55,782 bases of DNA, from the NCBI GenBank assembly GCA_016873935.1, contig VGVT01000001.1, positions 1 through 55,782 of the forward strand, read 5' to 3'. Under the pieces are notes generated by a model. It had not been told where the DNA came from, did not search any database, and saw only the letters and a program-made list of their open reading frames with translations. Position 1 is the stretch's first letter. Each line of letters begins with the position of its first letter. A program made the position numbers and the translations under genes. This document shows positions 21,434 through 55,236 of this stretch, in pieces. Origin of the DNA: Betaproteobacteria bacterium. Lineage in GTDB: Bacteria > Pseudomonadota > Gammaproteobacteria > Burkholderiales > Thiobacillaceae.

Positions 21434-22162
21434 TCATTCGCGCCAGAGCAGGAAGACACAAGGGTGTTTGCGGAGTTCCGGCGGGCTCGCCGGCCATGCC
21501 GCGACGCGGGTGCTGAGGATGAGTTCGTCGCGACCGGTGAGGTCGCGCGCCACCGCCAGCCGGGTATCGGCGCGGCAGACCGCGAGGATGCTCTCCAGCA
21601 TGGCCGGGTTGCGGTAGGGCGTTTCGATGAAGATCTGGGTGGCGTTGTCGGTGGCGGCGCGCGCTTCCAGAGCGCGCAGGGCCTGGGCCCGCTCATCCGG
21701 CTTCGCCGGCAGATAGCCGTGGAAGGTGAAACGCTGGCCGACCATGCCTGCGGCCATCAGCGCCAGCAGGATGGAGGAGGGGCCGACCAGGGGACGCACC
21801 GGGATGCCGTGGTCGTGGGCCAGGCGCACCAGTTCGGCGCCGGGGTCGGCTACCGCGGGACAACCGGCTTCCGACAGCAGTCCGGCGTCGTGGCCGTCGA
21901 GCAGGGGACGCAGCAGGCTTTCGAGTTCGGCATTCCGGGTGTGCTCGTTGAGTTCCAGCAGGGTCAGTTGCTGGAGCGGCAGCGTGGTAGGCAGTTGCTT
22001 GAGGAAGGCCCGCGCGGTCTTCGCGTGCTCGACGATGAAGGTGGAGAGGTTGGCGGCGATGCGCCGTGTTGCTTCAGGCAGCACCGATTCCAGCGGGGAG
22101 TCGCCCAGAGGCGTGGGAATCAGGTAGAGGGTGCCCGGCGCTGTTTCCGCCACACGCCGCAC
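21434..22162 (-). CDS. SAM-dependent methyltransferase, RsmI/tetrapyrrole-methylase-like
   Basis: This 242-residue protein belongs to the tetrapyrrole (corrin/porphyrin) methylase superfamily. It begins GTLYLIPTPLGDSPL, like the GxLYxVxTPIGN start of RsmI, and has SEAGCPAVADPG and GPSSILLALMAAG at the SAM site. It lacks the C-terminal RsmI extension and several RsmI-specific residues, so it is the RsmI-like paralogue that often sits next to maf and not necessarily the 16S C1402 ribose methylase. GTG 22162 starts 3 bases after the maf stop; a second in-frame GTG at 22153 is an alternative. The substrate is unknown. Confidence 0.85.
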   Translation of the reverse strand: MRRVAETAPGTLYLIPTPLGDSPLESVLPEATRRIAANLSTFIVEHAKTARAFLKQLPTTLPLQQLTLLELNEHTRNAELESLLRPLLDGHDAGLLSEAGCPAVADPGAELVRLAHDHGIPVRPLVGPSSILLALMAAGMVGQRFTFHGYLPAKPDERAQALRALEARAATDNATQIFIETPYRNPAMLESILAVCRADTRLAVARDLTGRDELILSTRVAAWPASPPELRKHPCVFLLWRE

Positions 22163-22165
22163 GCC

Positions 22166-22756
22166 TTACCCCTCACGCCAGGTCAGCACATCCAGGCCCT
22201 CGTTGGCCAGCATCTCGGTGAGCCTGATGAGGGGCAGACCCACCAGGGCGTTGGGATCCTCGGTCTCGTAGCGGGCGATGAGGGCGATCCCCAGGGATTC
22301 GCTGCGCGCGCTGCCGCAGCAGTTGTAAGGTTGGTCCTTGCGCAGATAGGCCTCGATCTGGGCGTCGCTGTAGTGCCGCATCAGCAGGCGTACCGGTACG
22401 TTGGCGGTCTGCACCGATCCGGTCCCGGCATTGAGCAGGCTGAGGGCGGTGTGGAATTCCAGGGTTTTGCCACGCATCGCGCGAAGTTGTGCTACCGCCT
22501 TTTCGTGGCTACCGGGTTTGCCCAGTTGCACCCCTTCCAGCAGAGCGACCTGGTCGGAACCGATGATGAGTGCGTCGGGAAAACGCGCCGCCACCGCGCG
22601 CGCCTTCAGCACCGACAGGCGCTGGGCGGTCTCGTCCGGAGACTCGCCCGGCAAGGGCGTCTCGTCCACGTCCGGGGCCGCCACCTCGAAGGGCACCCCC
22701 AGGCGGGCGAGGAGTTCGCGGCGGTAGGGGGAGGTTGAAGCGAGGACGAGGCGCAT
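22166..22756 (-). CDS. Maf family nucleotide pyrophosphatase (YceF type)
   Basis: This 196-residue Maf protein hydrolyses canonical or modified nucleoside triphosphates. Key features are the N-terminal LASTSPYRRELL (the SxSPRR motif) and the basic DETPLPGE strand. The catalytic aspartate is in IIGSDQVALL (about residue 69). The segment GKPGSHEKA is like the YceF subgroup, which prefers m7GTP. The start ATG 22756 has no visible Shine-Dalgarno sequence; instead a long stem-loop repeat fills the space up to the oadA stop. In enterobacteria yceF lies beside the yceD-rpmF-plsX cluster, which is also nearby here. Confidence 0.92.
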   Translation of the reverse strand: MRLVLASTSPYRRELLARLGVPFEVAAPDVDETPLPGESPDETAQRLSVLKARAVAARFPDALIIGSDQVALLEGVQLGKPGSHEKAVAQLRAMRGKTLEFHTALSLLNAGTGSVQTANVPVRLLMRHYSDAQIEAYLRKDQPYNCCGSARSESLGIALIARYETEDPNALVGLPLIRLTEMLANEGLDVLTWREG

Positions 22757-22763
22757 GTCTGAG

Positions 22764-22857
22764 CGGGTGGCTGGTAGCTGGTAGCTGGTAGCGGTCCATC
22801 AGCGCGCCTCCGGCGCGGAAACTTGATCTACCTGCTACAGACTACCCCCTACAAGCT
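22764..22857. repeat. Heptad-arm stem-loop repeat, copy A
   Basis: The left arm has 7-bp units of GTAGCTG type (22766-22796). The apex is GCGCGCC-TCC-GGCGCGG (22802-22817). The right arm has CTAC-led 7-bp units (22828-22857). It lies between oadA and maf and ends about 8 bases from the maf start. This is the copy with the least perfect right arm (CTACCTG, CTACAGA, CTACCCC, CTACAAG). Confidence 0.85.
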
Positions 22858-22860
22858 AAA

Positions 22861-24717
22861 TTATTCCGGCTGAATCTCCACCAGCACCTGATCTGGCGTC
22901 ACCGCGTCGCCCTTGGCCACGTGGACTTGCACCACGGTACCGGAGACCGGGGCCTGGACTTCGTTCTCCATCTTCATCGCCTCGATGACCAGGACACCGT
23001 CGCCAGCCTTGACCTTGTCACCGGGCTTGACCTTGACGTCGACGATGGTGCCGGGCATGGCGGTGGTGACGCAGCCGGCGTGGGTGGGACGCGGACGCTG
23101 CTTGCTGCCGCCAGCCGCGGCCTTGCCGCCGGCCGACTTGCGCGGCGCGGCGGCGCCGGGGGTGACTTCCACCTCGTCCAGGGCCTCCAGCAGGACTTCC
23201 TCGGCGACCCCGTCGACGTGCACGTAGAACGGACGCTGGCCCTCGCCGCCATGGCCGGTACCCTTGATGCGGATATGGTAGGTCTCGCCGTGCAGGGTGA
23301 CGTTGAATTCGCTGGGCGCATAGATGGCCGGGCAGGAAGCGGCTTCCTTGGATTCCGCCGGCAGCAGCGGTTCGGGAGTCAGGGTGCCGGCGGCCCGCTC
23401 CTGCAGGAAGGTGCGGCCGATGTCGGGGAACATGGCGTAAGTCAGCACGTCCTCGTCGGATTTGGCCAGACCCTCGGCCTCGCCGCGCAGCTTGTCGAGT
23501 TCGTCGGTGAGCAGATCGGCGGGGCGGCAGGTGATGACCTCCTGGTTGCCCACCGCGAGTTTCTTCACTTCCTCGTTGACCTTGCCCGGGGCGGCACCGT
23601 AGCGGCCCAGGAGGTAGCTTTTCACCTCGTTGGTGACCGACTTGTAGCGCCCGCCGGTGAGCACGTTGAGCACGGCCTGGGTGCCGACGATCTGCGAGGT
23701 GGGTGTGACCAGGGGAGGGTAGCCGAGGTCCTCGCGCACGCGGGGAATCTCCGCCAGCACCTCGTCCATGCGGTTCAGCGCGCCTTGCTCGCGGAGCTGG
23801 TTGGTGAGGTTGGAGATCATGCCGCCCGGCACCTGGGAGACCAGGATGCGGGTGTCCACCTGCGGGCCGGACATCTCGAACTGCCAGTATTTCTTGCGCT
23901 GTTCGCGGAAGTAGGCGCTGATTTCCTGCAGTTTGACGAGATTCAGACCGGTGTCGTATTCGGTGCCGGCGAGGGCGGCCACCAGGCTTTCCGTGGTGGG
24001 GTGGCTGGCGCCTTCAGAGTAGGCGGACAGGCAGGTGTCGATCATGCTGGCGCCGGCCTCGACTGCCTTCAGGTGCACCATGCTGGCCAGGCCCGAGGTG
24101 GCGTGGCTGTGCGTGTGGATGGGAAGGGAGACGGCGGCCTTCAGGGCCTTCACCAGCTTCTCGGTGTCGTAGGGCGTCAGCAGGCCGGCCATGTCCTTGA
24201 TGGCCAGGGTGTCGCAGCCCATGGCTTCCAGTTCCTTCGCCATGGCAACGAAATAGTCGATGCCGTGCACCGGGCTGGTGGTGTAGCTGAGCGTGCCCTC
24301 GGCGTGCTTGCCGGCCGCCTTCACCGCCTCGATGGAGACGCGCAGGTTGCGCAGGTCGTTCATGGCGTCGAACACACGGAACACGTCGATGCCATTGTCC
24401 GCGCACTTCGTCACGAAGGCGCGCACCACGTCGTCGGGGTAATGCCGGTAGCCGAGCAGGTTCTGGCCGCGCAGCAGCATCTGGATGCGGGAGTTGGGCA
24501 GGGCGCGGCGCAGTTTCTTCAGGCGCTCCCAAGGATCCTCCTTGAGGAAGCGCACGCAGGCGTCGAAGGTGGCGCCGCCCCAGGCCTCGAGCGACCAGTA
24601 GCCGGCGGCGTCGAGGGCGCCGCAGATGGGCAGCATGTCCTCGGTGCGCATGCGGGTGGCGATCAGGGACTGGTGGCCGTCGCGCAGGACCAGTTCGGTG
24701 ACGTGTACTTTCGGCAT
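22861..24717 (-). CDS. Pyruvate carboxylase subunit B / oxaloacetate decarboxylase alpha-type protein
   Basis: A 618-residue carboxyltransferase plus biotin carrier. The N-terminal TIM-barrel starts VTELVLRDGHQSLIATRMR with the metal-binding aspartate. It contains the carbamylated-lysine motif IKDMAGLLTP (about residue 176) and the HTHSHATSG metal-histidine pair. A helical PYC/OadA domain follows, then a flexible alanine/glycine-rich linker (about residues 520-540). The C-terminal biotinyl domain has EAMKMENEV, with the biotin lysine at 582. No OadB or OadG sodium-pump genes are present, and a biotin carboxylase gene lies 12 bases upstream. I therefore infer an anaplerotic two-subunit pyruvate carboxylase rather than a decarboxylase. 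Confidence 0.92.
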   Translation of the reverse strand: MPKVHVTELVLRDGHQSLIATRMRTEDMLPICGALDAAGYWSLEAWGGATFDACVRFLKEDPWERLKKLRRALPNSRIQMLLRGQNLLGYRHYPDDVVRAFVTKCADNGIDVFRVFDAMNDLRNLRVSIEAVKAAGKHAEGTLSYTTSPVHGIDYFVAMAKELEAMGCDTLAIKDMAGLLTPYDTEKLVKALKAAVSLPIHTHSHATSGLASMVHLKAVEAGASMIDTCLSAYSEGASHPTTESLVAALAGTEYDTGLNLVKLQEISAYFREQRKKYWQFEMSGPQVDTRILVSQVPGGMISNLTNQLREQGALNRMDEVLAEIPRVREDLGYPPLVTPTSQIVGTQAVLNVLTGGRYKSVTNEVKSYLLGRYGAAPGKVNEEVKKLAVGNQEVITCRPADLLTDELDKLRGEAEGLAKSDEDVLTYAMFPDIGRTFLQERAAGTLTPEPLLPAESKEAASCPAIYAPSEFNVTLHGETYHIRIKGTGHGGEGQRPFYVHVDGVAEEVLLEALDEVEVTPGAAAPRKSAGGKAAAGGSKQRPRPTHAGCVTTAMPGTIVDVKVKPGDKVKAGDGVLVIEAMKMENEVQAPVSGTVVQVHVAKGDAVTPDQVLVEIQPE

Positions 24718-24729
24718 GGGACGATCCTC

Positions 24730-26148
24730 TTACAAGCCCATATGGGCGGCGATGGCCGCGGACAAGGCGGCGGCCACATGTTCGGCGGGGCGCTTGACCG
24801 CGTAGTTGAGCAGTTCCGGATGGGCTTCGACGAAGCCGGTGTTGAAGCGGCCGGAGCGAAAATCCGGGTTCTGCAGAATTTCCTGATAGTAGGGAATGGT
24901 GGTCTTGACGCCGTACACCTTCATGTCGTCCAGGGAACGGCGGCCGCGCTCGATCACCGCCTCCCAGGTCAGCGCCCAGACCGTGAGCTTGGCACACATG
25001 GAGTCGTAGTAGGGCGGGATGGTGTAGCCCGAATACATGGCCGCGTCGACGCGCACGCCGGGGCCGCCGGGGGCGTAGTAGCGGGTGATGCGGCCGAAAC
25101 TGGGTAGGAAGCTGTTTTTTGGATCCTCGGCGTTGATGCGGAATTCCATGGCGAAGCCGCGGTGGCGGATGTCCTCCTGCTTGTACTGCAGGGGCAGGCC
25201 ATCGGCGATGCGGATCTGCTCCTGGACGATGTCGATGCCGGTGATCGTCTCGGTGACGCAGTGTTCCACCTGCAAGCGGGTGTTCATCTCCATGAAGAAG
25301 AACTGGTTGTCCGCATCCAGCAGGAACTCGACGGTGCCGGCGTTCCTGTAGCCGACCGCCTTGGCGGCGCGCACCGCGAGCTTGCCGATGTATTCGCGCT
25401 GGGCCTCGCTGAGCTGCGGCGAGGGGGCGATCTCGATCAGTTTCTGGTTGCGGCGCTGGATGGAGCAGTCGCGTTCGTACAGGTGGACGCAATCGCCGTG
25501 GCTGTCGCCGATGATCTGCACCTCGATGTGCTTGGGGTTCACCACGCACTTCTCGATGAAGACCTCCGGCTTGCCGAAGGCCTTGGTGGCTTCGGAGACC
25601 ACCCGCTCGTAGTTCTTCACCAGTTCATCGTCGGAATCGCAGCGGCGGATGCCGCGGCCGCCGCCGCCGTTGGTGGCCTTGAGCATGACCGGGTAGCCGA
25701 TCTCACGGGCCAGTTCGAGGGCTTCCTCGGCGTTTTCCAGGTTGTGGTCGGAGCCGGGTACCACTGGGATGCCGGCCTTGATCATGGCCTGGCGGGCCTG
25801 GATCTTGTCGCCCATCTGGGTGATGACCTCGGCGGTGGGGCCGATGAACTTGATGCCGCGGCGCGCGCACACCTCGGCCAGCACGGGATTCTCCGAGAGG
25901 AAGCCGTAGCCGGGATGAAGCGCGTCGCAACCGGAGGCCACCGCCAGATTGACGATGTTGTGAGCGTTGAGGTAGCCCAGCACGGGGTCGGAGCCGATGT
26001 TGTAGGCGACGTCGGCCTTCTTGACATGGAGGGCGTGGCGGTCGGCATCGGTATAGATGGCGACCGACTGGATGCCCATCTCCTTGCAGGCCCGCACGAT
26101 GCGGACCGCGATTTCGCCCCGGTTGGCAATGAGTATCTTCTTGATCAC
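24730..26148 (-). CDS. Biotin carboxylase, pyruvate carboxylase subunit A
   Basis: This 472-residue ATP-grasp biotin carboxylase forms carboxybiotin from bicarbonate and ATP. It begins IKKILIANRGEIAVRI, the family signature, and has the glycine-rich ATP loop (GGGGRGIR, about residues 163-170), the EFLLD and EMNTRLQVEH active-site motifs and GFAMEFRINAEDP. GTG 26148 was chosen because AAAGG lies upstream and this is where homology begins; the frame stays open to 26226. Length fits the PycA subunit. It forms an operon with the carboxyltransferase/biotin carrier gene downstream. A near-consensus promoter for the divergent yceD gene lies just upstream of it. Confidence 0.93.
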   Translation of the reverse strand: MIKKILIANRGEIAVRIVRACKEMGIQSVAIYTDADRHALHVKKADVAYNIGSDPVLGYLNAHNIVNLAVASGCDALHPGYGFLSENPVLAEVCARRGIKFIGPTAEVITQMGDKIQARQAMIKAGIPVVPGSDHNLENAEEALELAREIGYPVMLKATNGGGGRGIRRCDSDDELVKNYERVVSEATKAFGKPEVFIEKCVVNPKHIEVQIIGDSHGDCVHLYERDCSIQRRNQKLIEIAPSPQLSEAQREYIGKLAVRAAKAVGYRNAGTVEFLLDADNQFFFMEMNTRLQVEHCVTETITGIDIVQEQIRIADGLPLQYKQEDIRHRGFAMEFRINAEDPKNSFLPSFGRITRYYAPGGPGVRVDAAMYSGYTIPPYYDSMCAKLTVWALTWEAVIERGRRSLDDMKVYGVKTTIPYYQEILQNPDFRSGRFNTGFVEAHPELLNYAVKRPAEHVAAALSAAIAAHMGL

Positions 26149-26219
26149 GCTACAGCCTTTACTCGAGTGGAGCGGGGAGGATTCCGACACGGATTCGGAG
26201 TCGAAATAGTCCCGTAACT

Positions 26220-26248
26220 TTGACAAAAAAGGCCGTAAAGCTTAACAT
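26220..26248 (+). promoter_or_regulatory. Near-consensus sigma-70 promoter of the yceD-rpmF-fab cluster
   Basis: TTGACA at 26220-26225 and TAACAT at 26243-26248 are separated by exactly 17 bp, so the -35 is perfect and the -10 matches four of six. Transcription would begin near 26255-26258, at the yceD ATG itself (26258). The mRNA would thus have almost no leader. Confidence 0.75.
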
Positions 26249-26255
26249 TTACGGC
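26225..26255 (-). terminator. Hairpin with T-run on the minus strand, overlapping the yceD promoter
   Basis: GCCGTAAA at 26232-26239 and TTTACGGC at 26248-26255 form an 8-bp stem. On the minus strand it is followed by six T residues (26230-26225), like an intrinsic terminator for antisense transcription leaving yceD. As DNA, the same palindrome spans the promoter -10 and could be an operator. Confidence 0.5.
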
Positions 26256-26257
26256 TT

Positions 26258-26695
26258 ATGTCTGCACCGGGATACCTGGACGCACTGAGTTTCGCCCGCT
26301 CCGGCGCGAGCCTGGAAGGGGAACTCCGCGCCGATCAGCTGCCCCGCCTGCAAAGCAATTTGACCTCAGATGATGCTGCGGTGCAATACCGGATCGTGGG
26401 CATAGTCGAAGCCGGCCGGCCGGCTTTGAGCTTATGGATCGAGGCGGATGTCCGCCTGACCTGTCAGCGTTGCCTGGAGCCCTTCCGGCAACGTGTGGAA
26501 CTGGAGAATGTGTTGCCCGTCGCGCGGGACGAAGCCGAGCTGGCGCGATGGGAAACGGATGATCCCCTGGTGGATGCGCTGGTGGCCGATGACCGGCTGG
26601 ACGTGGCGTCCCTGGTGGAAGACGAAATTTTGTTGAGCCTGCCCGTTGCGCCCCGCCATCCGGAGGGGGAGTGCGGTGCGGGATTCCAGGCTTGA
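26258..26695 (+). CDS. yceD: YceD family protein (DUF177), 23S rRNA accumulation
   Basis: A 145-residue DUF177/YceD protein, the usual upstream partner of rpmF in bacteria and linked in E. coli and plants to 23S rRNA accumulation. The family CxxC-type core LTCQRCLEPF is present (about residues 67-76), with a C-terminal acidic stretch (VEDEILLSLPVAPRHPEGEC). The start MSAPGYLDALSFARSG agrees with other members. The predicted transcription start coincides with the ATG, so no Shine-Dalgarno sequence is expected. It is the first gene of the fatty-acid cluster. Confidence 0.92.
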   Translation: MSAPGYLDALSFARSGASLEGELRADQLPRLQSNLTSDDAAVQYRIVGIVEAGRPALSLWIEADVRLTCQRCLEPFRQRVELENVLPVARDEAELARWETDDPLVDALVADDRLDVASLVEDEILLSLPVAPRHPEGECGAGFQA

Positions 26696-26722
26696 CGCGA
26701 GATCGATGTAAAGGAGAACGAT

Positions 26723-26908
26723 ATGGCCGTTCAGCAGAACAAGAAATCCCCGTCCAAGCGCGGCATGCACCGCGCCCACGACTTTCTGAGCAATCCTCCC
26801 ACCGCGGTGGAAGCCACCACCGGCGAGGTTCACATGCGCCACCACATCAGCCCCAACGGCTATTACCGTGGCCGCAAGGTCATCAGCGGCAAGGCCGACA
26901 ACAGCTGA
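26723..26908 (+). CDS. rpmF: 50S ribosomal protein L32
   Basis: This 61-residue basic protein is the large-subunit L32. It starts [22 protein letters not shown], the conserved signature, and ends GYYRGRKVI. It lacks the zinc-binding cysteine pairs of some L32 forms (no cysteine at all), as in E. coli. A strong ribosome site (AAAGGAG) precedes the ATG. Placement between yceD and plsX is canonical. Confidence 0.98.
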
Positions 26909-26958
26909 TCAACCGCCGCGATCCGGCCGGCCGTGGCCCACTCCGCGGCTGATCGAAC

Positions 26959-27999
26959 ATGCGCGAAATCACCATCGCCATTGACGCCATGGGGGGCGAC
27001 CACGGTCCCCACGTGACCGTCAAGGCCGCTTTGCAGGCCTTGCGCGCCGAACCGGACATCAACATCGTCCTGGTCGGCCTGGAGGACGTGATTCGCGCCG
27101 AACTCAAGGCCAACCGCGCCGAGACAGGAACCCACCTGCGCATCCACCACGCCAGCGAGGTGGTGAAGATGGACGACCCCCTGCCGGTCGCACTGCGCAT
27201 CAAGAAAAATTCCTCCATGCGGTTGACCGCCGATCTGGTCAAGCGCGGCGAGGCCGACGCCGGCGTGTCCGCCGGCAATACCGGCGCCCTCATGGCGGTT
27301 TCCCGCTTCGTCCTGAAAACCCTGCCCGGCATCGATCGACCCGCCATCGCTTCCACCCTGCCTTCCCGCACCGGCAGCACCTATGTGCTGGACCTGGGTG
27401 CCAACGTGGATTGCGGCGCCGAACACCTGCTCCAGTTCGGCATCATGGGGGCAGCCCTGGCCGCGGCCATCGAGCACAAGGAGCGCCCCAGCGTCGGCCT
27501 GCTCAACATCGGCGAGGAAGACATCAAGGGCAACGAGGTGGTCAAGCGTGCCGGTGAGCTTCTCAAGGATAGCGGCCTGAATTTCCATGGCAACGTCGAG
27601 GGCGACGACATCTACAAGGGCACCGTGGATGTGGTGGTGTGCGACGGATTCGTCGGCAACATCGCCCTGAAGACCTCCGAAGGCCTGGCCAAGCTGATCG
27701 GCGATCAGTTGCGCACGGAGTTCAAAAGGAATCCCTTGACCATGCTGGCCGGACTCATCGCCCAGCCGGTCCTGCGCGCCTTCAAGCGAAAACTGGACCC
27801 CCGCCGCTATAACGGTGCCAGCCTGCTCGGCCTGAACGGGGTGATCATCAAGAGCCACGGCTCCGCCGACGTGTTCGCCTTTACCCAGGCCGTGCACAAG
27901 GCCGTCGAGGAGGTGCGCGGCGGACTGTTGCGGCGCATCGCCGAACAGGTGGGCAACCACCAAAACGGCTTGCCGGAAGAAGAAGGAGAAGCGGCGTGA
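26959..27999 (+). CDS. plsX: Phosphate acyltransferase PlsX
   Basis: This 346-residue enzyme makes acyl-phosphate from acyl-ACP for phospholipid synthesis. It opens with [14 protein letters not shown], the diagnostic motif, and has [17 protein letters not shown] and GNEVVK segments. The segment [16 protein letters not shown] lies near residue 230. The end overlaps the GTG start of fabH, so the two are coupled. A 50-base gap after rpmF shows no separate promoter. Confidence 0.97.
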
Positions 28000-28970
28000 G
28001 TCAAACGCCAAGTATTTTTTCCCGCATCATCGGGACCGGCAGCCACTTGCCGGCCCGTGTGCTGACCAATGCCGACCTGGAAAAGCAGATTGAAACCACC
28101 AGCGAGTGGATCCTGGAGCGAACCGGCATCCGCGAGCGCCACATCGCCGCCGAGGGCGAGCTGACCAGCGATCTGGCGCAGCAGGCCGCGGAAGCGGCGA
28201 TCGAGGCGGCCGGCATCGACGCCGCCGAGATCGGGCTCATCGTCGTCGCCACCACCACCTCCGACCGTATCTTTCCCAGTACCGCATGCGCGCTGCAGGC
28301 CAAACTGGGCATCACCAACGGCTGTCCCGCTTTCGACGTGCAGGCGGTGTGCAGCGGCTTCGTCTACGCGGTCTCCGTGGCCGACCAGTTCATCCGCTCC
28401 GGTCAGGTCAAGACCGCCCTGGTGGTGGGCGCGGAAACCCTGTCGCGCATCACCGACTGGAGTGATCGGGGCAACTGCATACTCTGGGGCGATGGCGCCG
28501 GCGCCGTGGTCCTGCAAGCCTCGGAGCAGCCCGGCATCCTCAATACCCACCTGCACGCCGACGGCCGCTATCAGGATCTGCTGTTCGTCGACGGCGGCGT
28601 GTCGCTGAAGAAGGAAGGCGCCTGCTACATGCGCATGTCAGGCAATGCCGTGTTCAAGATGGCGGTCAACACCCTGGACGCCATCGTCGACGAGACCCTG
28701 GAGGCCAACGGCTTGCAAAAGACCGACATCGACTGGCTGGTGCCCCACCAGGCCAACATCCGCATCATACAGGCCACCGCCAGGAAGCTGGGCATGGGCA
28801 TGGAGCGGGTGGTGGTCACCGTCGACCGCCATGGCAACACCTCCGCCGCCTCGATTCCCCTCGCTTTCGATACCGCCGTGCGGGAAGGCAAGATCAAGGC
28901 CGGCGAGCTGGTGCTGATGGAAGCCTTCGGCGGTGGCTTTACCTGGGGCTCGGTGCTGGTGAGGATGTGA
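27996..28970 (+). CDS. fabH: 3-oxoacyl-ACP synthase III
   Basis: This 324-residue KAS III initiates fatty acid synthesis by condensing acetyl-CoA with malonyl-ACP. The catalytic triad is C119 in QAVCSGF, a histidine in VPHQANIRI and an asparagine in [13 protein letters not shown] 27996 overlaps the plsX stop and has AAGGAG at 27983-27988. After the stop there is a copy of the stem-loop repeat before fabD. Confidence 0.97.
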
Positions 28971-28975
28971 TTTGG

Positions 28976-29070
28976 AGCCTGTGGCTGGTGGCTGATAGCG
29001 GGTGGCTCCTGATCCGCGCCTGCGGCGCGCTGACTCAGGCTACGAGCTACCCTCTACGAGCTACCTGCTT
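28976..29070. repeat. Heptad-arm stem-loop repeat, copy B
   Basis: The left arm has degenerate GTGGCTG/ATAGCGG 7-bp units (28981-29008). The apex is CCGCGCC-TGC-GGCGCGC. The right arm is GCTACGAG CTACCCT CTACGAG CTACCTG (29039-29067). It lies between fabH and fabD and ends 4 bases before the fabD Shine-Dalgarno sequence AAGGAG. Confidence 0.85.
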
Positions 29071-29085
29071 CCCCAAGGAGACCCA

Positions 29086-30012
29086 ATGAAATTTGCTTTC
29101 GTTTTCCCCGGCCAGGGCTCCCAGTCGGTGGGCATGATGGCCCACTACGGCGATGCCGTCCGCGCCACTTTCGACGAGGCTTCCGCCGCCCTGGGCCAGG
29201 ATCTGTGGGCCATGGTGGGCGAGGGGCCGGCTGAAGCCCTCAACCAGACCGTCAACACCCAGCCGGCGATGCTGGTCGCCGGCGTCGCGGCCTACCGGCT
29301 CTGGCTGGCCCAGGGCGGCCCCGCGCCAGCCCTGATGGCGGGCCACAGCCTGGGCGAGTACACCGCCCTCGTCTGTGCCGGCGCCCTGGGGTTCGCCGAT
29401 GCCGTCCGTCTCGTGCGCCTGCGCGCCGAGGCCATGCAATCCGCCGTGCCCGAGGGCGTTGGCGCCATGGCCGCCGTGCTCGGCCTGGATGACGATCTGG
29501 TGTGCGCGGTCTGCGCCGAGGCCGCCCAGGACGAGGTGCTGGAGGCGGTCAACTTCAATTCCCCCGGCCAGGTGGTCATCGCCGGCAACAAGGCCGCCGT
29601 GGACCGGGGTTGTGCCCTGGCCAAGGAGAAGGGCGCGAAGCGGGCGTTGCCGCTGCCGGTGTCCGTGCCTTCCCATTGCGCGCTGATGAAACCGGCGGCG
29701 GAGAAGTTGCTGGTTGCGCTGAACGGCATCGAGGTCAAGGCACCCTCCGTGCCGGTGCTGCACAACGCCGATGTCGCCGGCCATGCCGACCCCGCGGCCA
29801 TCCGCGACGCCCTGGCGCGGCAACTTTTCAGCCCGGTGCGCTGGGTGGAGACGGTGCGGGCGATGGCCGCGCAAGGCGTCGAACTCATCGCCGAATGCGG
29901 GCCGGGCAAGGTGCTGTCCGGTCTCAACAAGCGCATCGTCGAGGTACCCACCCTGGCCATCACCGATGCCGCCAGCCTGGCGGACGTGCTGGGCAAGGTG
30001 AAGGGCACCTGA
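29086..30012 (+). CDS. fabD: Malonyl-CoA:ACP transacylase
   Basis: This 308-residue enzyme loads malonyl groups onto acyl carrier protein. It begins FAFVFPGQGSQSVGM. The nucleophile is S88 in AGHSLGEYTAL, and the arginine-containing RLRAEAMQ lies near residue 115. The histidine of the catalytic dyad is in PSHCALM (about residue 200). ATG 29086 follows AAGGAG at 29075-29080. The Shine-Dalgarno sequence lies immediately after a stem-loop repeat that fills the fabH-fabD gap. Confidence 0.97.
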   Translation: MKFAFVFPGQGSQSVGMMAHYGDAVRATFDEASAALGQDLWAMVGEGPAEALNQTVNTQPAMLVAGVAAYRLWLAQGGPAPALMAGHSLGEYTALVCAGALGFADAVRLVRLRAEAMQSAVPEGVGAMAAVLGLDDDLVCAVCAEAAQDEVLEAVNFNSPGQVVIAGNKAAVDRGCALAKEKGAKRALPLPVSVPSHCALMKPAAEKLLVALNGIEVKAPSVPVLHNADVAGHADPAAIRDALARQLFSPVRWVETVRAMAAQGVELIAECGPGKVLSGLNKRIVEVPTLAITDAASLADVLGKVKGT

Positions 30013-30061
30013 CTGATATTTCCGGATGCCGGCCATGGTCCGGCCCAGATAGGAGACAGAC

Positions 30062-30799
30062 ATGGAAATTCGCGTCGCATTGGTCACCGGCGCCTCCCGC
30101 GGGATCGGCCAGGCCATCCTGCATGCCCTGGGACGGGCTGGCTGCCTCGTGGTGGGAACCGCCACCAGTGAATCCGGCGCCCAGGCCATTGGTGATGGCC
30201 TGGCCCAGGCGGGCATCAAGGGCGAAGGCCTGATGCTCAACGTCAACGATGCCGCCCAGGTCGACGCGGCCATCGAGGGCATCCTGGCTCGCCACGGCCG
30301 CATCGACATCCTGGTCAACAACGCCGGCATCACCCGCGACAACCTGCTCATGCGCATGAAGGACGAGGAGTGGGCGGCCATCATCGATACCAACCTCACC
30401 TCCGTGTTCCGTCTTTCCCGCGCGGTGCTGCGGCCCATGATGAAGGCCCGCTTCGGCCGCATCGTCAACATCGCCTCGGTGGTGGGGGCCTCCGGCAACG
30501 CCGGCCAGACCAACTACGCCGCCGCCAAGGCCGGCATGATCGGCTTCTCCAAGTCGCTGGCGCAGGAGGTGGGCAGCCGCGGAATCACCGTAAACTGCCT
30601 CGCGCCGGGCTTCATCGACACCGACATGACCAAGGCCCTGCCGGAAGCCGCCCGCGCCAAACTGATGGAGCGCATCCCTCTGGGCAAACTGGGCACTCCC
30701 GAGGACATTGCCCATTCCGTGGCCTTCCTGGCCTCGGACGGGGCGGGCTACATCACCGGTGCCACCCTGCACGTCAATGGCGGTATGTACATGGATTGA
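30062..30799 (+). CDS. fabG: 3-oxoacyl-ACP reductase
   Basis: A 245-residue short-chain dehydrogenase that reduces 3-oxoacyl-ACP with NADPH. The cofactor motif TGASRGIG is at residues 9-16, and NNAG is at 86-89. The catalytic residues are S139, Y152 and K156 (in NYAAAKAG). The C-terminal [12 protein letters not shown] is the standard FabG end. It is preceded by AGGAGAC. Confidence 0.98.
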
Positions 30800-30850
30800 A
30801 CCGACAGGTCGTATTATTCGCATCCGACCTGATTCTCCAGCCGGGGTTTT

Positions 30851-30859
30851 TGCTAGAAT
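30851..30859 (+). promoter_or_regulatory. Extended -10 promoter of acpP
   Basis: TGCTAGAAT at 30851-30859 is an extended -10 element (TG, one base, TAGAAT). No good -35 lies 17 bp upstream, which suits an extended -10 promoter. It would give acpP its own transcript with a leader of about 30 bases. Confidence 0.65.
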
Positions 30860-30896
30860 TTCCCCGCTTTTTTTCCTACCCGTAGGGAGTTTTCTG

Positions 30897-31136
30897 ATGA
30901 GTGATATTGAGCAGCGTGTCAAAAAGATCGTCGCCGAGCAGCTGGGCGCCAACGAAGCCGATGTGAAGCTGGAGTCCTCCTTCGTGGACGACCTGGGCGC
31001 CGACTCCCTGGATACGGTGGAATTGGTGATGGCCCTGGAAGAAGCCTTCGAGTGTGAGATTCCGGACGAGGAGGCCGAGAAGATCACCACCGTGCAGCAG
31101 GCCGTTGACTACATCAACACCCACCTGAGCAAGTAA
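30897..31136 (+). CDS. acpP: Acyl carrier protein
   Basis: This 79-residue acidic four-helix carrier holds growing acyl chains on a phosphopantetheine attached to S37 in the [11 protein letters not shown] motif. It starts [12 protein letters not shown] and is very acidic, like other bacterial ACPs. GTAGGGAG precedes the ATG. It has its own extended -10 promoter and is followed by a strong terminator, so it is set up for high expression apart from the rest of the cluster. Confidence 0.99.
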
Positions 31137-31180
31137 TCGTCCTCCTGGCGCATCGCCGGCCCCAGGTCGGCGACGCGCGG

Positions 31181-31205
31181 GCCCGGCTATCGAGCCGGGT
31201 TTTTT
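31181..31205 (+). terminator. Intrinsic terminator between acpP and fabF
   Basis: GCCCGGCT at 31181-31188, loop ATCG and AGCCGGGT at 31193-31200 form an 8-bp stem with a T6 run (31200-31205). It should end much acpP transcription before fabF. Confidence 0.9.
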
Positions 31206-31230
31206 CTTTATACCGTCGAGGAGTCGCATC

Positions 31231-32484
31231 TTGTCCCAGCATTCACGCCCCGCCAGACGTCGAGTGGTGATCACCGGTCTGGGCGTCATTTCCCCGCTCG
31301 GCAACAGCGTGTCGGAGGCCTGGGACAAGCTCGTGGCGGGCAAATCGGGGATCACGCGCATTACCCGCTTCGATCCCTCTGCTTTCTCCTCGCAGATCGC
31401 CGGCGAGGTCAAGGATTTCGACGTGGCCAAGTACCTGTCTCCGAAGGAGGCGCGGCGCATGGATGTGTTCATCCATTACGGCCTGGCGGCGGGTATCGAT
31501 GCGGTGAAGGATTCCGGCCTGGAAGTCACCGACGCGAACCGGGAACGCATCGGCGTCAACATCGGTTCCGGCATCGGCGGCCTGCCGATGATCGAGGATA
31601 CCCACAAGACTTACGTTGATACGGGCGGCCCGCGCAAGATTTCGCCTTTCTTCATCCCGGGCACCATCATCAACATGATCTCGGGCAATCTGTCCATCCT
31701 GCTGGGTCTGAAGGGCCCCAATCTGGCCGTGGTCACCGCCTGTACCACCGGTCTGCACGCCATCGGTACCAGCGCCCGCATGATCGAGCACAACGACGCC
31801 GACGTGATGGTCTGCGGCGGCGCCGAATCCACCGTCTGCCCGCTGGCCATCGGCGGTTTCTCCGCCGCCAAGGCGCTGTCCACGCGCAACGACGATCCCG
31901 CCACCGCCAGCCGGCCCTGGGACAAAGATCGCGACGGTTTCGTGCTGGGCGAAGGTGCCGGTGTCATGGTGCTGGAGGAGTACGAGCACGCGAAGGCGCG
32001 CGGCGCCCGCATCTACGCGGAAATCTCCGGTTTCGGCATGAGCGGCGACGCCTTCCACATGACCGCGCCGGATACGGACGGCCCCAAGCGTTCCATGCTC
32101 AACGCTTTGCGCGATGCCGGGGTGAACGCCGACGAGGTGCAATACATCAACGCCCACGGCACCTCGACGCCCCTGGGCGACAAGAACGAGACCGAGGCCA
32201 TCAAGCTGGCCTTCGGCGAGTCCGCGCGAAATCTCGTGGTCAATTCCACGAAATCCATGACCGGCCACCTGCTCGGTGGCGCCGGCGGCCTGGAATCGGT
32301 GTTCACCGCGCTGGCCGTGCATCACCAGATCTCGCCGCCCACCATCAATATCTTTTCGCAGGATCCCGAGTGCGACCTGGACTACTGCGCCAACGTCGCC
32401 CGCGCCATGAAGATCGACGTCGCATTGAAGAACAACTTCGGTTTCGGCGGCACCAACGGCACGCTGATCTTCCGCAAGGTGTGA
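31231..32484 (+). CDS. fabF: 3-oxoacyl-ACP synthase II
   Basis: This 417-residue KAS II elongates acyl-ACP chains and controls unsaturated fatty acid length. The catalytic cysteine is C171 in VTACTTGLHAIG; the two histidines are in NAHGTSTPLGD and MTGHLLGG. TTG 31231 was chosen because GAGGAG lies 7-12 bases upstream and the next methionine is too far into the fold. It follows a strong terminator, so either read-through or a local promoter must serve it. Confidence 0.96.
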   Translation: MSQHSRPARRRVVITGLGVISPLGNSVSEAWDKLVAGKSGITRITRFDPSAFSSQIAGEVKDFDVAKYLSPKEARRMDVFIHYGLAAGIDAVKDSGLEVTDANRERIGVNIGSGIGGLPMIEDTHKTYVDTGGPRKISPFFIPGTIINMISGNLSILLGLKGPNLAVVTACTTGLHAIGTSARMIEHNDADVMVCGGAESTVCPLAIGGFSAAKALSTRNDDPATASRPWDKDRDGFVLGEGAGVMVLEEYEHAKARGARIYAEISGFGMSGDAFHMTAPDTDGPKRSMLNALRDAGVNADEVQYINAHGTSTPLGDKNETEAIKLAFGESARNLVVNSTKSMTGHLLGGAGGLESVFTALAVHHQISPPTINIFSQDPECDLDYCANVARAMKIDVALKNNFGFGGTNGTLIFRKV

Positions 32485-32505
32485 GCCCGGCCATCGGGCG
32501 GTTTG

Positions 32506-33327
32506 ATGGCACCCGCCGCTGAAGTGGCTCCCCGCATTCTCGTCAACGGCGAGGCGCTTGGCCACGTCAGCGCGCTGGACCGGGGCCTGGGCTATGGCGA
32601 CGGGGTGTTTCGCACGCTGCGCATCGAGGCCGGGCAGCCCCGCTGGTGGGACGAACATCTGGCCCGGCTGGCCGAGGATTGCGCCCGCCTGCGCCTGGAT
32701 TGCCCCAGCCGCGACACGCTGGAGCGCGATCTGTCTGACTTGGCGCCGCTGCCGGCCTGGGGCGTATTGCGCATTACGCTGACCCGCGGCGAGGGGCCGC
32801 GCGGCTATCGTCCGCCATTTCCGGCCCATGGCACCCGCATCCTCGCCTGCTGGCCCGACCCTCATGCCTTGCCGCGCGACAACATCCGGGCGCGCGTATG
32901 CGACCTGCGCCTGGCCTGGCAGCCCGCGCTGGCTGGCATCAAGCATCTCAACCGCCTCGAACAGGTCATGGCGCGCGCGGAATGGGAGGATGCCGACATC
33001 GACGAAGGCATCCTGCTGGACCGCGACGGACGAATCGTCTGCGGCGTCTCGAGCAACCTGTTCTTCTGGCGGGACGACGGTCTGCATACCCCCGCCTTGC
33101 GCGGCTGTGGTGTCGCCGGAGTGACCCGCGGCCGCCTGCTGCGCCGCGCGGTCTCGGCAGGCATCGCGGTGCGGGAGGGCGAATATGTCCTCGACGATCT
33201 CTGGCAGGCGCAGGAACTCATGCTGACCAACAGCCTGACCGGCCTGCGGCGGGTGGCCAGGCTGGGCGAGAAAATCTGGGAGACGCCCGTCGTCAGCCCC
33301 CGTCTGCGCGAGTTGCTGGATGCTTAG
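32506..33327 (+). CDS. pabC: Aminodeoxychorismate lyase
   Basis: A 273-residue fold-type IV PLP enzyme releasing 4-aminobenzoate from aminodeoxychorismate for folate synthesis. It begins ILVNGEALGHVSALDRGLGYGDGVFRTLR, the diagnostic start. The PLP lysine is in AGIKHLNRLEQV, and EGILLDRDGRIVCGVSSN follows. TTG 32503 lies directly before ATG 32506; I took the ATG. The ribosome site is weak. It overlaps mltG by 8 bases, matching the conserved pabC-mltG-tmk-holB order. Confidence 0.95.
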   Translation: MAPAAEVAPRILVNGEALGHVSALDRGLGYGDGVFRTLRIEAGQPRWWDEHLARLAEDCARLRLDCPSRDTLERDLSDLAPLPAWGVLRITLTRGEGPRGYRPPFPAHGTRILACWPDPHALPRDNIRARVCDLRLAWQPALAGIKHLNRLEQVMARAEWEDADIDEGILLDRDGRIVCGVSSNLFFWRDDGLHTPALRGCGVAGVTRGRLLRRAVSAGIAVREGEYVLDDLWQAQELMLTNSLTGLRRVARLGEKIWETPVVSPRLRELLDA

Positions 33328-34318
33328 GTTGATCCGTCGGCTCCTTCTGCTGGCGCTACTCGTCGTCCTTGCCGCGTCTGGCTGGCTGCTGTACTACGCC
33401 GTGACGCCGATGCTCGGCGGCGGGGCCGCCTATCCGCTGGCCTTCTCCATCGAACGTGGTGCCAGCCTGCGCGCCGCCAGCGAGAGCCTGGGCGCGGCGG
33501 GCGCTCTGGAGAGGCCCGAAGCCTTCGTCCTCATCGCGCGCTTGCGCGGCATGGCCGGCGACATCCGGGCGGGCAGTTATGCTCTGGAAACGCCGGCCAG
33601 TCCCCTGGAACTGTTGCGCAAGATCACTGCCGGGGACACCGTGCTGCAGAAGATCACCTTTGTCGAGGGCTGGACTTTCGCCGAGATGCGCCGCGCCATC
33701 GAGGCCCATCCCGGCTTGCGGCAGGACACCGCGGGCCTGTCCGAAGCCGATCTGCTGAAGGCCGTGGGGGCCGAGGTGGAGCATCCCGAGGGCTGGTTCC
33801 TTCCCGATACCTATTTCTTCGACGCCGGCAGTTCCGACTTGGCCATCTATCGGCGCGCGCACGATGCCATGCGCAAGCTGTTAGAGCAGGAATGGCCGAT
33901 GCGCGCAGCGGGCCTGCCCTATGCCGCGCCCTACGAGGCCCTGATCATGGCCTCCATCATCGAGAAGGAAACCGGAGCGCCGGAAGAACGCCCGCAGATC
34001 GCCTCCGTGTTCGTCAACCGCCTGAGCATCGGCATGCGCCTGCAGACCGACCCCACCGTGATCTATGGCCTGGGTGCGCGCTTCGACGGCAATCTGCGCA
34101 AGGTCGATCTGCAGACGGATACCGCCTACAACACCTATACGCGTGCTGGCCTGACACCGACCCCCATTGCCCTGCCAGGGGCTGCCGCCCTGCGCGCGGC
34201 TCTGCACCCCGAGCAGACCCGCTACCTGTATTTCGTTTCCATGGGCAATGGCCTGCATGTGTTCTCGGAAAACCTGAACGCCCACAACCGTGCGGTGAAC
34301 CGCTACCAGAGACGCTAG
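33320..34318 (+). CDS. mltG: Endolytic murein transglycosylase MltG
   Basis: A 332-residue YceG/MltG protein that cuts nascent peptidoglycan and limits glycan strand length. One N-terminal membrane helix (about residues 7-28) anchors it facing the periplasm. A LysM-like subdomain (about 35-110) precedes the catalytic domain, where the conserved glutamate lies in IMASIIEKETG. The segments QTDPTVIYG and YNTYTRAGLTPTPIALPG are typical of the family. Confidence 0.96.
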   Translation: MLRLIRRLLLLALLVVLAASGWLLYYAVTPMLGGGAAYPLAFSIERGASLRAASESLGAAGALERPEAFVLIARLRGMAGDIRAGSYALETPASPLELLRKITAGDTVLQKITFVEGWTFAEMRRAIEAHPGLRQDTAGLSEADLLKAVGAEVEHPEGWFLPDTYFFDAGSSDLAIYRRAHDAMRKLLEQEWPMRAAGLPYAAPYEALIMASIIEKETGAPEERPQIASVFVNRLSIGMRLQTDPTVIYGLGARFDGNLRKVDLQTDTAYNTYTRAGLTPTPIALPGAAALRAALHPEQTRYLYFVSMGNGLHVFSENLNAHNRAVNRYQRR

Positions 34319-34327
34319 GACATCCAC

Positions 34328-34936
34328 ATGAAGGGCATGTTTCTCACCCTGGAAGGCGTCGACGGCGCCGGCAAGAGCAGCCATCTGGAATGGCTGGCCG
34401 CGTGGTTCCGCAGCCGCGGCCGCGTGGTGCGCATGACGCGGGAGCCGGGTGGCACGCCGGTCGGCGAGAAGTTGCGGGAGATCGTGCTGCATGAGCCCAT
34501 GCACGCGGAGACCGAGGCTTTGATCATGTTCGCCGCCCGCCGCGAGCACATCGAGCGGATCATCCGGCCGGCCCTGGCGGCGGGCGAGGTGGTCATCTCG
34601 GACCGTTTCACCGATGCCAGTTTCGCCTACCAGTGCGGCGGCAGGGGCCTGGCCGAGGCCAGGCTGGAGGTGCTGGAGGCATGGGTGCATGCCGATCTGC
34701 AGCCCGATCTGACCTTGCTGTTCGACCTGCCCACCGAAATCGCCGCGCGCCGCCTGGCGACAGCCCGTTCACCGGACCGCTTCGAGCGGGAAGAGGCGGA
34801 TTTTCACGCGCGTGTGCGCGCGGCTTATCTGCGCCGGGCCGAGCGACACCCCGAGCGCATCCGCGTGGTCGACGGCAGCCAAGGCCTGGAGGCGGTGCGC
34901 GCCCAGTTGCTGGCGATTCTGGAGTCGCTGCCATGA
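34328..34936 (+). CDS. tmk: Thymidylate kinase
   Basis: This 202-residue kinase phosphorylates dTMP. The P-loop reads [10 protein letters not shown] (about residues 8-17), the DRF motif is in [13 protein letters not shown], and the lid has [25 protein letters not shown] segment binds the nucleotide base. Its stop overlaps the holB start as ATGA. Confidence 0.97.
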
Positions 34937-36284: not shown

Positions 36285-36293
36285 TTTAGGGGC

Positions 36294-36382
36294 AGCTTGT
36301 AGCTCGTAGCGGGTAGCTTTTATTGCGCGCCGAAGGCGCGGAAAAATACGGCTACGAGCTACCGGCTACGAGCTACAAGCTT
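36294..36382. repeat. Heptad-arm stem-loop repeat, copy C
   Basis: This is the most perfect copy. The left arm AGCTTGTAGCTCGTAGCGGG (from 36294) is matched by the right arm CTACCGGCTACGAGCTACAA (ending near 36379). The apex is GCGCGCC-GAA-GGCGCGG (36325-36341). It lies between pilZ and tatD and ends 7 bases before the tatD start. Confidence 0.9.
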
Positions 36383-36389
36383 AAAAAAA

Positions 36390-37160: not shown

Positions 37161-37161
37161 A

Positions 37162-37188
37162 AGAAAACGGGCACCCGCGGGTGCCCGT
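37162..37188. terminator. Terminator between tatD and clpA
   Basis: A 22-base perfect palindrome (ACGGGCACCCG and its complement, 37167-37188) lies between the convergent genes. On the minus strand it is followed by TTTTCTTT, so it works best as the clpA terminator. Confidence 0.8.
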
Positions 37189-37210
37189 CGCGATGAGGCG
37201 GCTGGCGGGG

Positions 37211-53317: not shown

Positions 53318-53328
53318 GGATGACCAAC

Positions 53329-55127: not shown

Positions 55128-55224
55128 CAGCTCGTAGCCGGTAGCAGGTAGCTCGTAGTTTGGCTTGCGCGCCTTCGGCGCGGTTTAAGAGCTACCAACT
55201 ACCAGCTACCAACTACCAGCTACC
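55128..55224. repeat. Heptad-arm stem-loop repeat, copy D
   Basis: The left arm has 7-bp units CTCGTAG, CCGGTAG, CAGGTAG, CTCGTAG (55131-55158). The apex is GCGCGCC-TTC-GGCGCGG (55167-55183). The right arm has five units AGCTACC/AACTACC (55190-55224). It begins 3 bases after the hyaB stop and runs straight into the AAGGAG of hyaC. Confidence 0.9.
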
Positions 55225-55236
55225 AAGGAGACACAC

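What the first reader, a model, noticed from the sequence alone, without database searches (positions are those of the whole stretch)
22764..22857. A dispersed stem-loop repeat family with 7-bp repeat arms (copy A and overall description)
Four copies (22764-22857, 28976-29070, 36294-36382, 55128-55224) share one architecture but little exact sequence. The left arm has three to four 7-bp units around GTAG, the apex is GCGCC-NNN-GGCGC with variable loop (TCC, TGC, GAA, TTC), and the right arm has four to five units around CTAC. Loop changes and paired arm changes suggest selection for the fold, not the letters. All four are in gaps between co-directional genes. I do not know a described family with heptad arms of this kind, so it may be new. 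Copy number change of the 7-bp units could come from slippage.
Basis: partly seen in the sequence, partly recalled or inferred. Interest (0 to 1): 0.82.

Follow-up and report, generated by a model that had tools for sequence, protein, structure and literature searches.

The report
Heptad-armed hairpins between operon genes
These are copies of a real, genome-wide repeat family, long hairpins built from 7-base units that sit between a stop codon and the next gene, and comparison of related bacteria shows that many of the places are inherited while the letters inside are rewritten, sometimes to a different 7-base unit.

Summary
All four copies are real and belong to a genome-wide family: AGC-(NNGTAGC)~4, spacer, GCGCGCC-NNN-GGCGCGG, spacer, (GCTACNN)~4-GCT, median 97 nt. 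I read 31 distinct copies (73 strand-hits in the genome). 30 of 31 lie between co-directional genes, starting a median 2 nt after the stop codon and ending a median 8 nt before the next start.

Loops fit GNA/TNC in 21 of 26.

Comparing the same sites is the main result. Relative G016 (flanks 77-95% identical) has a GTAG hairpin at 19 of 24 sites, with its own unit flavour at 19 of 19. Sister G015 (flanks 87-100%) has one at 12 of 25; by my reading 7 others carry hairpins with other 7-nt units (GGGAAAN, GGACTGA) and 4 are short gaps. Sites look inherited, interiors rewritten.

GTAGC-armed hairpins occur in many phyla; facing tandem arrays of other units there mostly have period 7.

Best reading: a REP-like intercistronic element acting in mRNA as a stop-adjacent structure; function is inferred. 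Closest precedents: Xanthomonas GGGAATC heptads, GTAG REPs.

The parts
22762..22857 (.). Copy A: heptad-armed hairpin between a carboxylase-like gene (HMGL-like, PYC_OADA, biotin domain; 22861-24717, -) and maf (22166-22756, -)
   Evidence: Pfam
28976..29069 (.). Copy B: hairpin (body reversed) between fabH (27996-28970, +) and fabD (29086-30012, +); a GTAG hairpin is in this gap in G000 and G015 only, of 14 genomes whose gap was read
36294..36381 (.). Copy C: hairpin between a PilZ-domain gene (35919-36284, +) and tatD (36390-37160, +)
55129..55225 (.). Copy D: hairpin between the NiFe-hydrogenase large subunit gene (53320-55125, +) and the next gene on the + strand, which was not identified
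22803..22817 (+). Apex of copy A: CGCGCC-TCC-GGCGCG (6-bp stem, triloop)
29015..29029 (-). Apex of copy B: loop TGC on +, GCA on -
36326..36340 (+). Apex of copy C: loop GAA
55168..55182 (+). Apex of copy D: loop TTC

Best explanation
A REP-like intercistronic palindrome family, one local representative of a wider kind of heptad-armed hairpin. Shown: nearly every copy read fills the gap between a stop codon and the next start codon of co-directional genes; the same gaps hold such hairpins in related species; the interior differs far more than the flanks (species-specific unit flavours, opposite core orientations, and in G015 hairpins of other 7-nt units). Inferred: the sites are inherited and the interior is rewritten in place. 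Inferred: in a polycistronic mRNA the very stable hairpin, whose base lies a few nt after the stop codon, works like a ribosome termination structure: it blocks scanning and re-initiation past the stop and may protect the upstream message. Any hairpin that begins at the stop and ends before the next start serves, which is why letters may change but place and shape stay. Inferred: rewriting occurs by unit slippage, strand switching or cruciform inversion between the inverted arms, and conversion between dispersed copies. GTAG units put TAG in all three frames on either strand (7 is not a multiple of 3), which would make insertion next to a gene end harmless.
For: Location: 30 of 31 co-directional, 1 convergent, 0 divergent; stop-to-element median 2 nt (30 copies), element-to-start median 8 nt (29 copies). 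A TAG inside the left arm is the upstream stop in about 9 of 30 (one of these has only a 47-codon upstream frame). Predicted folding -41 to -58 kcal/mol for the four copies. Shared sites: G016 19 of 24, G015 12 of 25; about 1 of 24 would coincide by chance if 46 copies were spread over 1000 gaps (assumed numbers). Interior: the own orthologue is the best of 26 own elements in 10 of 12 for G015 but 3 of 19 for G016 over 81 nt (7 of 12 and 5 of 19 over the 39-nt core). T at unit position 5 is 0.13 in own and 0.51 in G016, higher at 19 of 19 sites; unit sharing between species at the same site is 0.30, below sharing between different sites within G016 (0.47) or within own (0.37). Core orientation opposite at 4 of 12 (G015) and 8 of 19 (G016) shared sites, clearly by descent only at L178:2477 and L182 in G015. 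Body orientation relative to transcription is about random (13:12). In 68 elements of named loci from several phyla the position is similar (44 co-directional, 17 convergent, 5 divergent, 2 unclear; median 2.5 nt after the stop in co-directional gaps). RTS: a stable structure centred 5 nt after stops that governs re-initiation (PMC7518266, abstract and passages).
Against: No transcript or translation data. RTSs are reported depleted at operon gaps under 25 nt, and four G015 sites have gaps of 17-35 nt and no such hairpin, so it is dispensable. SD motifs are no rarer next to elements (18 of 29 without) than at control genes (21 of 36 without), so nothing shows that downstream translation depends on the hairpin. 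A pure structure function does not explain why GTAG letters are kept so strictly, nor why facing NN do not pair. At G016 the same-site unit sharing (0.30) is only slightly above different-site sharing across genomes (0.26; permutation p = 0.035), so descent of each G016 copy rests on the shared place, not on its letters. The change from GTAG to GGGAAAN units cannot be ordinary homologous conversion. Gap-filling could simply be where insertions survive.
Confidence: 0.45

Rival explanations
1. Selfish miniature palindrome (MITE-like) mobilised by an unidentified recombinase that targets gene 3' ends or existing hairpins; site sharing and family swaps reflect repeated insertion into hot spots.
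For: Dispersed, sharp AGC...GCT ends, lineage-specific copy number (strand-hits G000 73, G016 92, G015 and G010 27 each, 14 of 23 genomes 0-2), short gaps without it at 4 of 25 G015 sites, other palindromes in the same gaps, patchy spread over phyla.
Against: A direct duplication of 3 nt or more flush with the ends in 0 of 30 copies (chance mean about 1; ends are approximate); 19 of 24 sites shared with G016 fits inheritance better; the 8 distinct GGGAAAN copies listed in G015 have centres that look unrelated, so no common mobile body in that family.
Confidence: 0.25
2. Member of the GTAG REP superfamily moved by a RAYT (Y1 tyrosine transposase).
For: GTAG motif, GC-rich small hairpin, gene-end location and TAG stops supplied by the repeat, as described for GTAG REPs (PMC3733652, abstract and sections 5 and 15 read).
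Against: No Y1_Tnp match in G000, G010 or G016, all rich in copies, though G015 and G012 have two each; no facing heptad arms at any of 12 Y1 loci read, only one of which is from G015 (one locus has a single heptad pair); GTAG is repeated inside facing arms, not a single unpaired foot; length about 97 nt, not 20-40.
Confidence: 0.08
3. Neutral 7-bp microsatellite plus snap-back copying: arrays grow by slippage and fold-back synthesis makes the inverted partner.
For: Pure arrays exist in the same genome (about 13 GCTACTC units at G000:C3:9479-9567); GGGAAAN pairs enclose different centres; core orientations differ.
Against: Facing arms are not copies of each other in NN; a fixed apex with GNA/TNC loops and about 4 units per arm; architecture kept at shared sites although flanks differ by 5-23% (G016).
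Confidence: 0.12
4. Heptads are binding sites for a sequence-specific regulator or nucleoid protein.
For: GTAG letters near-invariant with free spacing bases; a similar proposal was made for heptad sites of Geobacter (PMC2700814, passages).
Against: Sites carry unrelated units in a sister species; gaps sit inside gene pairs, none divergent of 31. Flanking genes were annotated only for the window copies, so a shared function was not tested.
Confidence: 0.08
5. Intrinsic transcription terminators.
For: Strong hairpins after stop codons.
Against: No T tract follows; the scan of 22000-37500 finds none at A or B and only a weak site inside the arm of C, with 12 sites overall against 9.0 +/- 2.8 in shuffles (D was not scanned); located between co-directional genes.
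Confidence: 0.04

Closest known systems
Xanthomonas GGGAATC / (GGGANTN)n heptamer repeats, with Nostoc GGGGA(C/T)T (PMC4692102; one results section and passages, among them parts of the abstract)
   Same: 7-nt unit, mostly four units, 70 and 75 inverted pairs in the two genomes studied, between aligned ORFs near stop codons, under-represented between divergent ORFs, majority said to be transcribed
   Different: Unit is GTAGCNN, without a G-tract for G-quadruplexes; common apex GCGCGCC-NNN-GGCGCGG; here facing arms, shared sites and in-place unit change were measured
GTAG repetitive extragenic palindromes / SMAG (PMC3733652; abstract and sections 5 and 15 read)
   Same: GTAG tag, small GC-rich hairpin with short loop, gene 3' ends, TAG stops supplied by the repeat
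   Different: GTAG repeated about 4 times per arm at 7-nt spacing and facing CTAC; 97 nt; no Y1_Tnp match in this genome
Geobacter metallireducens heptad elements (GGACCGG x4, 49 copies; MTYCTGA x5, 15 of 16 class-3 sites) (PMC2700814, passages)
   Same: Four to five 7-nt units, dispersed; the regulator-site classes are said to be mostly in pairs
   Different: Other units; some lie inside genes; interpreted as regulatory RNA elements or regulator sites
TAACTGA heptad repeats of Beggiatoaceae, Cyanobacteria and Bacteroidetes (PMC4679880; abstract and section 10 read)
   Same: Intergenic 7-nt units with patchy cross-phylum distribution
   Different: In the Maribeggiatoa genome 169 direct sets and one indirect, most just upstream of start codons
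Ribosome termination structure, RTS (PMC7518266; abstract and passages)
   Same: Stable mRNA structure beginning right after the stop codon
   Different: RTS is a general folding signal, not a repeat family; no translation test here

Membership tests
GTAG REP superfamily | Single unpaired GTAG at one foot of the palindrome | tested here: not met
   GTAG repeated about 4 times in each arm and facing CTAC
GTAG REP superfamily | 20-40 bp length | tested here: not met
   median 97 nt over 30 copies
GTAG REP superfamily | 6-13 bp stem with short loop | tested here: met
   CGCGCC-NNN-GGCGCG apex, 98.7% of cells paired
GTAG REP superfamily | RAYT (Y1 transposase) association | tested here: not met
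   0 PF01797 matches in G000, G010, G016, 2 each in G012 and G015; no facing heptad arms at 12 Y1 loci
GTAG REP superfamily | Near gene 3' ends, between unidirectional or convergent ORFs | tested here: met
   30 unidirectional, 1 convergent of 31
Xanthomonas-type heptamer inverted pairs | Tandem 7-nt units, about 4 per array, in facing pairs | tested here: met
Xanthomonas-type heptamer inverted pairs | G-rich unit GGGANTN | tested here: not met
   unit GTAGCNN; GGGAAAN hairpins occur in sister G015 (14 overlapping hits, 8 distinct copies listed) and 2 in G000
Xanthomonas-type heptamer inverted pairs | Close to the upstream stop codon between aligned ORFs | tested here: met
   median 2 nt
Ribosome termination structure | Stable structure immediately downstream of the stop codon | tested here: met
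   (predicted folds of the four window copies only)
Ribosome termination structure | Controls re-initiation | not testable with these tools
   needs reporter operons
Rfam families | Covariance-model match at gathering score | tested here: not met
   0 matches in the window

The most novel reading that the evidence does not exclude
Heptad-armed hairpins are one cross-phylum kind of intercistronic element defined by shape and a 7-nt unit length, not by sequence. Sites are inherited and an unknown process rewrites the unit in place, so that related species carry GTAGCNN, GGGAAAN, GGACTGA or CGGATTT arms in the same gaps. The Xanthomonas GGGAATC, Geobacter and Thiobacillus repeats would then be forms of one phenomenon.
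Probability: 0.3. Interest if true: 0.82.

Novelty: new variant of a known kind. Interest (0 to 1): 0.62.

Why it matters
Heptamer repeats have been reported separately in Xanthomonas, Nostoc, Geobacter and Beggiatoaceae, each with its own explanation (G-quadruplexes, regulator sites, translational control). Finding the same layout (7-nt units, facing arms, flush with stop codons) with unrelated units in the same gap of close relatives argues that the unit's letters are secondary. It makes the question 'why seven?' testable by comparing strains, and gives a test bed for how stop-adjacent mRNA hairpins arise and are kept. If the rewriting is real, repeat annotation by sequence similarity would miss much of the class.

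Tried and rejected
Compensatory evolution of the arms: tested and rejected. RAYT mobilisation: weakened. Flush target duplication: none of 3 nt or more in 30 copies. Intrinsic terminator: no support at A, B or C. UNCG RNA tetraloop as the reason for TNC loops: dropped on register, since it would break the other stem pairs; a GNA triloop (stable in single-stranded DNA; recalled, no call) fits, but GNA and TNC are equally frequent on the mRNA strand (10 and 11, 4 other, of 25), so no strand preference. Loss of the Shine-Dalgarno motif next to elements: no difference from control (18 of 29 against 21 of 36 without). 'All heptads carry stop codons in three frames' as the reason for seven: true for GTAGCNN, not for GGGAAAN, CGGATTT or GGGAATC, so not general. 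Chi (GCTGGTGG, recalled) resemblance in copies A and B: dropped, the other units do not resemble it. An exact 12-mer literature search listed 3 papers, all on plants (listing only). Searches for heptanucleotide, heptamer and palindromic repeats listed the papers cited but I saw no description of a GTAGC-armed family; subscription journals are largely absent from the library. A search on REP gene conversion listed nothing that I used; PMC10666635 and PMC7518266 came.

Caveats. Gene calls are from my own simple codon model, which missed one upstream gene (L174); start codons and element ends are approximate, and one search set the left ends of B and L186 some nt too far out. Sites were chosen because G000 has the element, so gains in the other species are not sampled. 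In one search only 150 candidates per genome were scored and the place list was cut, so copy numbers other than the 31 read are strand-hits and may be lower bounds. In one search the 15 non-GTAG period-7 pairs include one duplicate and four that on reading contain GTAG/CTAC units, leaving 10 distinct against 4 at other periods (two at 9, two at 5); the p-value used 15 of 19, before this correction. The 80 loci were chosen for carrying GTAGC hairpins. In unselected stretches of relatives, period-7 inverted pairs were 2 in 378 kb (genus, with 1 at period 4), 0 in 179 kb (family, with 1 at period 5), 0 in 345 kb (order, none at any period). Classification of non-GTAG fillers in G015 was by eye; L008 and L181 are irregular. 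Of the 4 opposite cores in G015, L179 looks like an unrelated copy and L173 is mixed. A narrower gene search around the named loci gave 43 co-directional, 19 convergent, 5 divergent and 8 unclear. The first element parser had a loop-length bug and was replaced.

Full report
What is there. The four copies are real. Reading further copies from the same genome gives one architecture: AGC, about four NNGTAGC units, a spacer, GCGCGCC-NNN-GGCGCGG, a spacer, about four GCTACNN units, GCT. The apex-to-first-GTAG distance is 19-21 nt on 49 of 52 sides, and arms have 4 units in 34, 5 in 9 and 3 in 9 of 52 cases (26 copies). The median length is 97 nt (30 copies). A covariance model built from 26 copies finds 73 strand-hits in the 2.70-Mb genome (which scored only 150 candidates per genome); 31 distinct copies were read. 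Rfam has no match in the window.

Letters or fold. In the 208 units counted, GTAG is nearly invariant (205, 203, 189, 207) and the next C is 174 of 208, while NN is free. NN of facing units are equal in 12.6% of 95 comparisons, against 16.6% when arms of different copies are paired (p = 0.87). With all 32 possible pairs counted on the 26-copy alignment, none of the five measures exceeds shuffling (covariation score 0.086 against 0.095 +/- 0.008). The arms therefore give no evidence of selection on pairing; the letters and the 7-nt spacing are what is kept. The apex differs: its loop fits TNC or GNA in 21 of 26 (GNA 12, TNC 9), against 12.5% expected for random triplets.

Where it sits. With a simple codon-model gene caller, 30 of 31 copies lie between co-directional genes, 1 is convergent, none divergent. 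The element begins a median 2 nt after the upstream stop codon (30 copies) and ends a median 8 nt before the downstream start (29 copies); in about nine of 30 the upstream stop is a TAG inside the left arm. In the window the gaps are carboxylase-like/maf, fabH/fabD, PilZ/tatD and NiFe-hydrogenase large subunit/next gene (Pfam). Shine-Dalgarno motifs are missing at 18 of 29 downstream starts, but also at 21 of 36 control genes, so this is not a special feature. Orientation of the core relative to transcription is about random (13 to 12), and no direct duplication of 3 nt or more is flush with the ends in 30 copies.

Same gaps in relatives. The search held 23 genomes of the genus including the own one; 15 have model hits. 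A public locus holding an element identical to one of G016 is titled Thiobacillus denitrificans FI88_66_23, and G015 corresponds to contig WOUQ01000008.1, so the genus is Thiobacillus (inference). For 25 own sites readable in G015 (flanks 87-100% identical) there is a GTAG hairpin at 12, another heptad hairpin at 7 by my reading (GGGAAAN at L011, L174, L181, L183, L184; GGACTGA at A; an irregular GNGAGGC at L008), an unrelated palindrome at 2, and a gap of 17-35 nt at 4. For 24 sites readable in G016 (flanks 77-95%) there is a GTAG hairpin at 19. In G017 gap A holds CGGATTT arms. In the fabH-fabD gap only G000 and G015 have the GTAG hairpin of 14 genomes read. A strict GGGAAAN-hairpin pattern gives 14 overlapping hits in G015 (8 distinct copies listed, with centres that look unrelated), 2 in G000 and 0 in the 21 other genomes of the genus.

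Rewriting. The own element at the orthologous site is the best of 26 own elements in 10 of 12 cases for G015 but only 3 of 19 for G016 over 81 nt (7 of 12 and 5 of 19 over the 39-nt core). G016 has its own unit flavour, GTAGTCG: T at position 5 in 0.51 of units against 0.13 in the own genome, higher at 19 of 19 shared sites. Unit sharing at the same site between own and G016 (0.30) is below sharing between different sites within G016 (0.47) or within the own genome (0.37), and only slightly above different sites across the two genomes (0.26, permutation p = 0.035); for G015 the same-site value is 0.61. That is the pattern of concerted evolution at shared sites. The core has the opposite orientation at 4 of 12 shared sites in G015 and 8 of 19 in G016. 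At L178:2477 and L182 in G015 the inverted alignment to the orthologue is the best match, so inversion by descent is the simplest reading there; L179 in G015 and most G016 cores could equally be replacements.

Beyond the genus. The strict pattern with two GTAGC units facing two GCTAC units is found in 8 of 61 relatives including the own genome and 4 of 185 genomes sampled from the class, again including it. The arms are shared while the centre differs between lineages, for example AAACCNGGTTT-like centres in Gallionellaceae (read by eye). In 68 elements from the 80 named loci, 44 are co-directional, 17 convergent, 5 divergent, 2 unclear, with the element a median 2.5 nt after the stop in co-directional gaps and 2 nt from the nearest stop in convergent ones (a narrower search gave 43, 19, 5 and 8). 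In the same 600 kb, facing tandem arrays without GTAG/GTGG units have period 7 in 15 of 19 cases (10 of 14 after removing a duplicate and GTAG-like cases by hand), with 2 each at 9 and 5. In unselected stretches they are rare: 2 period-7 pairs in 378 kb of the genus (1 at period 4), none in 179 kb of the family (1 at period 5) or 345 kb of the order. In the orthologous window region of five genomes there were 6 period-7 pairs, at least one in each genome, against one each at 4 and 6.

Explanation. Shown: architecture, place, sharing of sites, greater difference inside than outside, opposite cores, different units in the same gap. Inferred: inheritance of sites with in-place rewriting by slippage, strand switching and conversion between copies; and that the hairpin acts in the mRNA as a stop-adjacent structure, as described for the ribosome termination structure (PMC7518266, abstract and passages). 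Coupling of translation across such a gap would be unlikely without the hairpin, since coupling is reported to be almost abolished at about 20 nt (PMC10666635, abstract); whether the folded hairpin shortens the distance is not known. The function part is uncertain, because four G015 sites lack any such hairpin.

Known relatives. The layout agrees with the GGGAATC repeats of Xanthomonas (7-nt units, mostly four, facing pairs, near stops; PMC4692102), and the place and TAG stops agree with GTAG REPs (PMC3733652), but the defining foot and size of REPs are not met and no RAYT link was found. Geobacter (PMC2700814) and Beggiatoaceae (PMC4679880) have other heptads. I therefore call it a new variant of a known kind, with a bolder unifying reading kept as the novel case.

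Noticed in passing
L208 (G012, fabH-fabD gap): The same gap that holds copy B carries a different palindrome pair, CGTCATTCCCGCGCAAGCGGGAATCCAG, in relative G012; in G001 it is only 19 nt.
   Followed up: partly
G000:C3:9479-9567 (L239): A tandem array of about 13 GCTACTC units; whether it has a facing arm was not checked. Shorter GCTACCC or GCTACTC arrays lie on C50, C15, C29 and C33.
   Followed up: no
L340 and L366 (G015): At two sites where G000 has a GTAG hairpin, G015 has other palindromes, GTAGGAGCGGCCTTGGCCGCGA... and a C/G-rich CCCCTCCCCC... hairpin.
   Followed up: no
G024:C1:1129611-1129680 (L053): A family relative holds a long GTAGCTG array with a short facing GCTACGC arm, possibly a young element.
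   Followed up: no
L373-L384: Twelve viral-contig stretches carry GTAGC heptad hairpins; whether these are phage or host DNA was not checked.
   Followed up: no
L298 1-59 (G016:C2): A contig begins in a GGGTGAG heptad array, which suggests that heptad arrays can break assemblies.
   Followed up: no
L324 (G015) against L178:5809: By eye, the G015 allele without the element has a TGA stop and a GGAG motif just before the start codon, both missing in the G000 allele, where a TAG of the left arm ends the upstream gene.
   Followed up: partly
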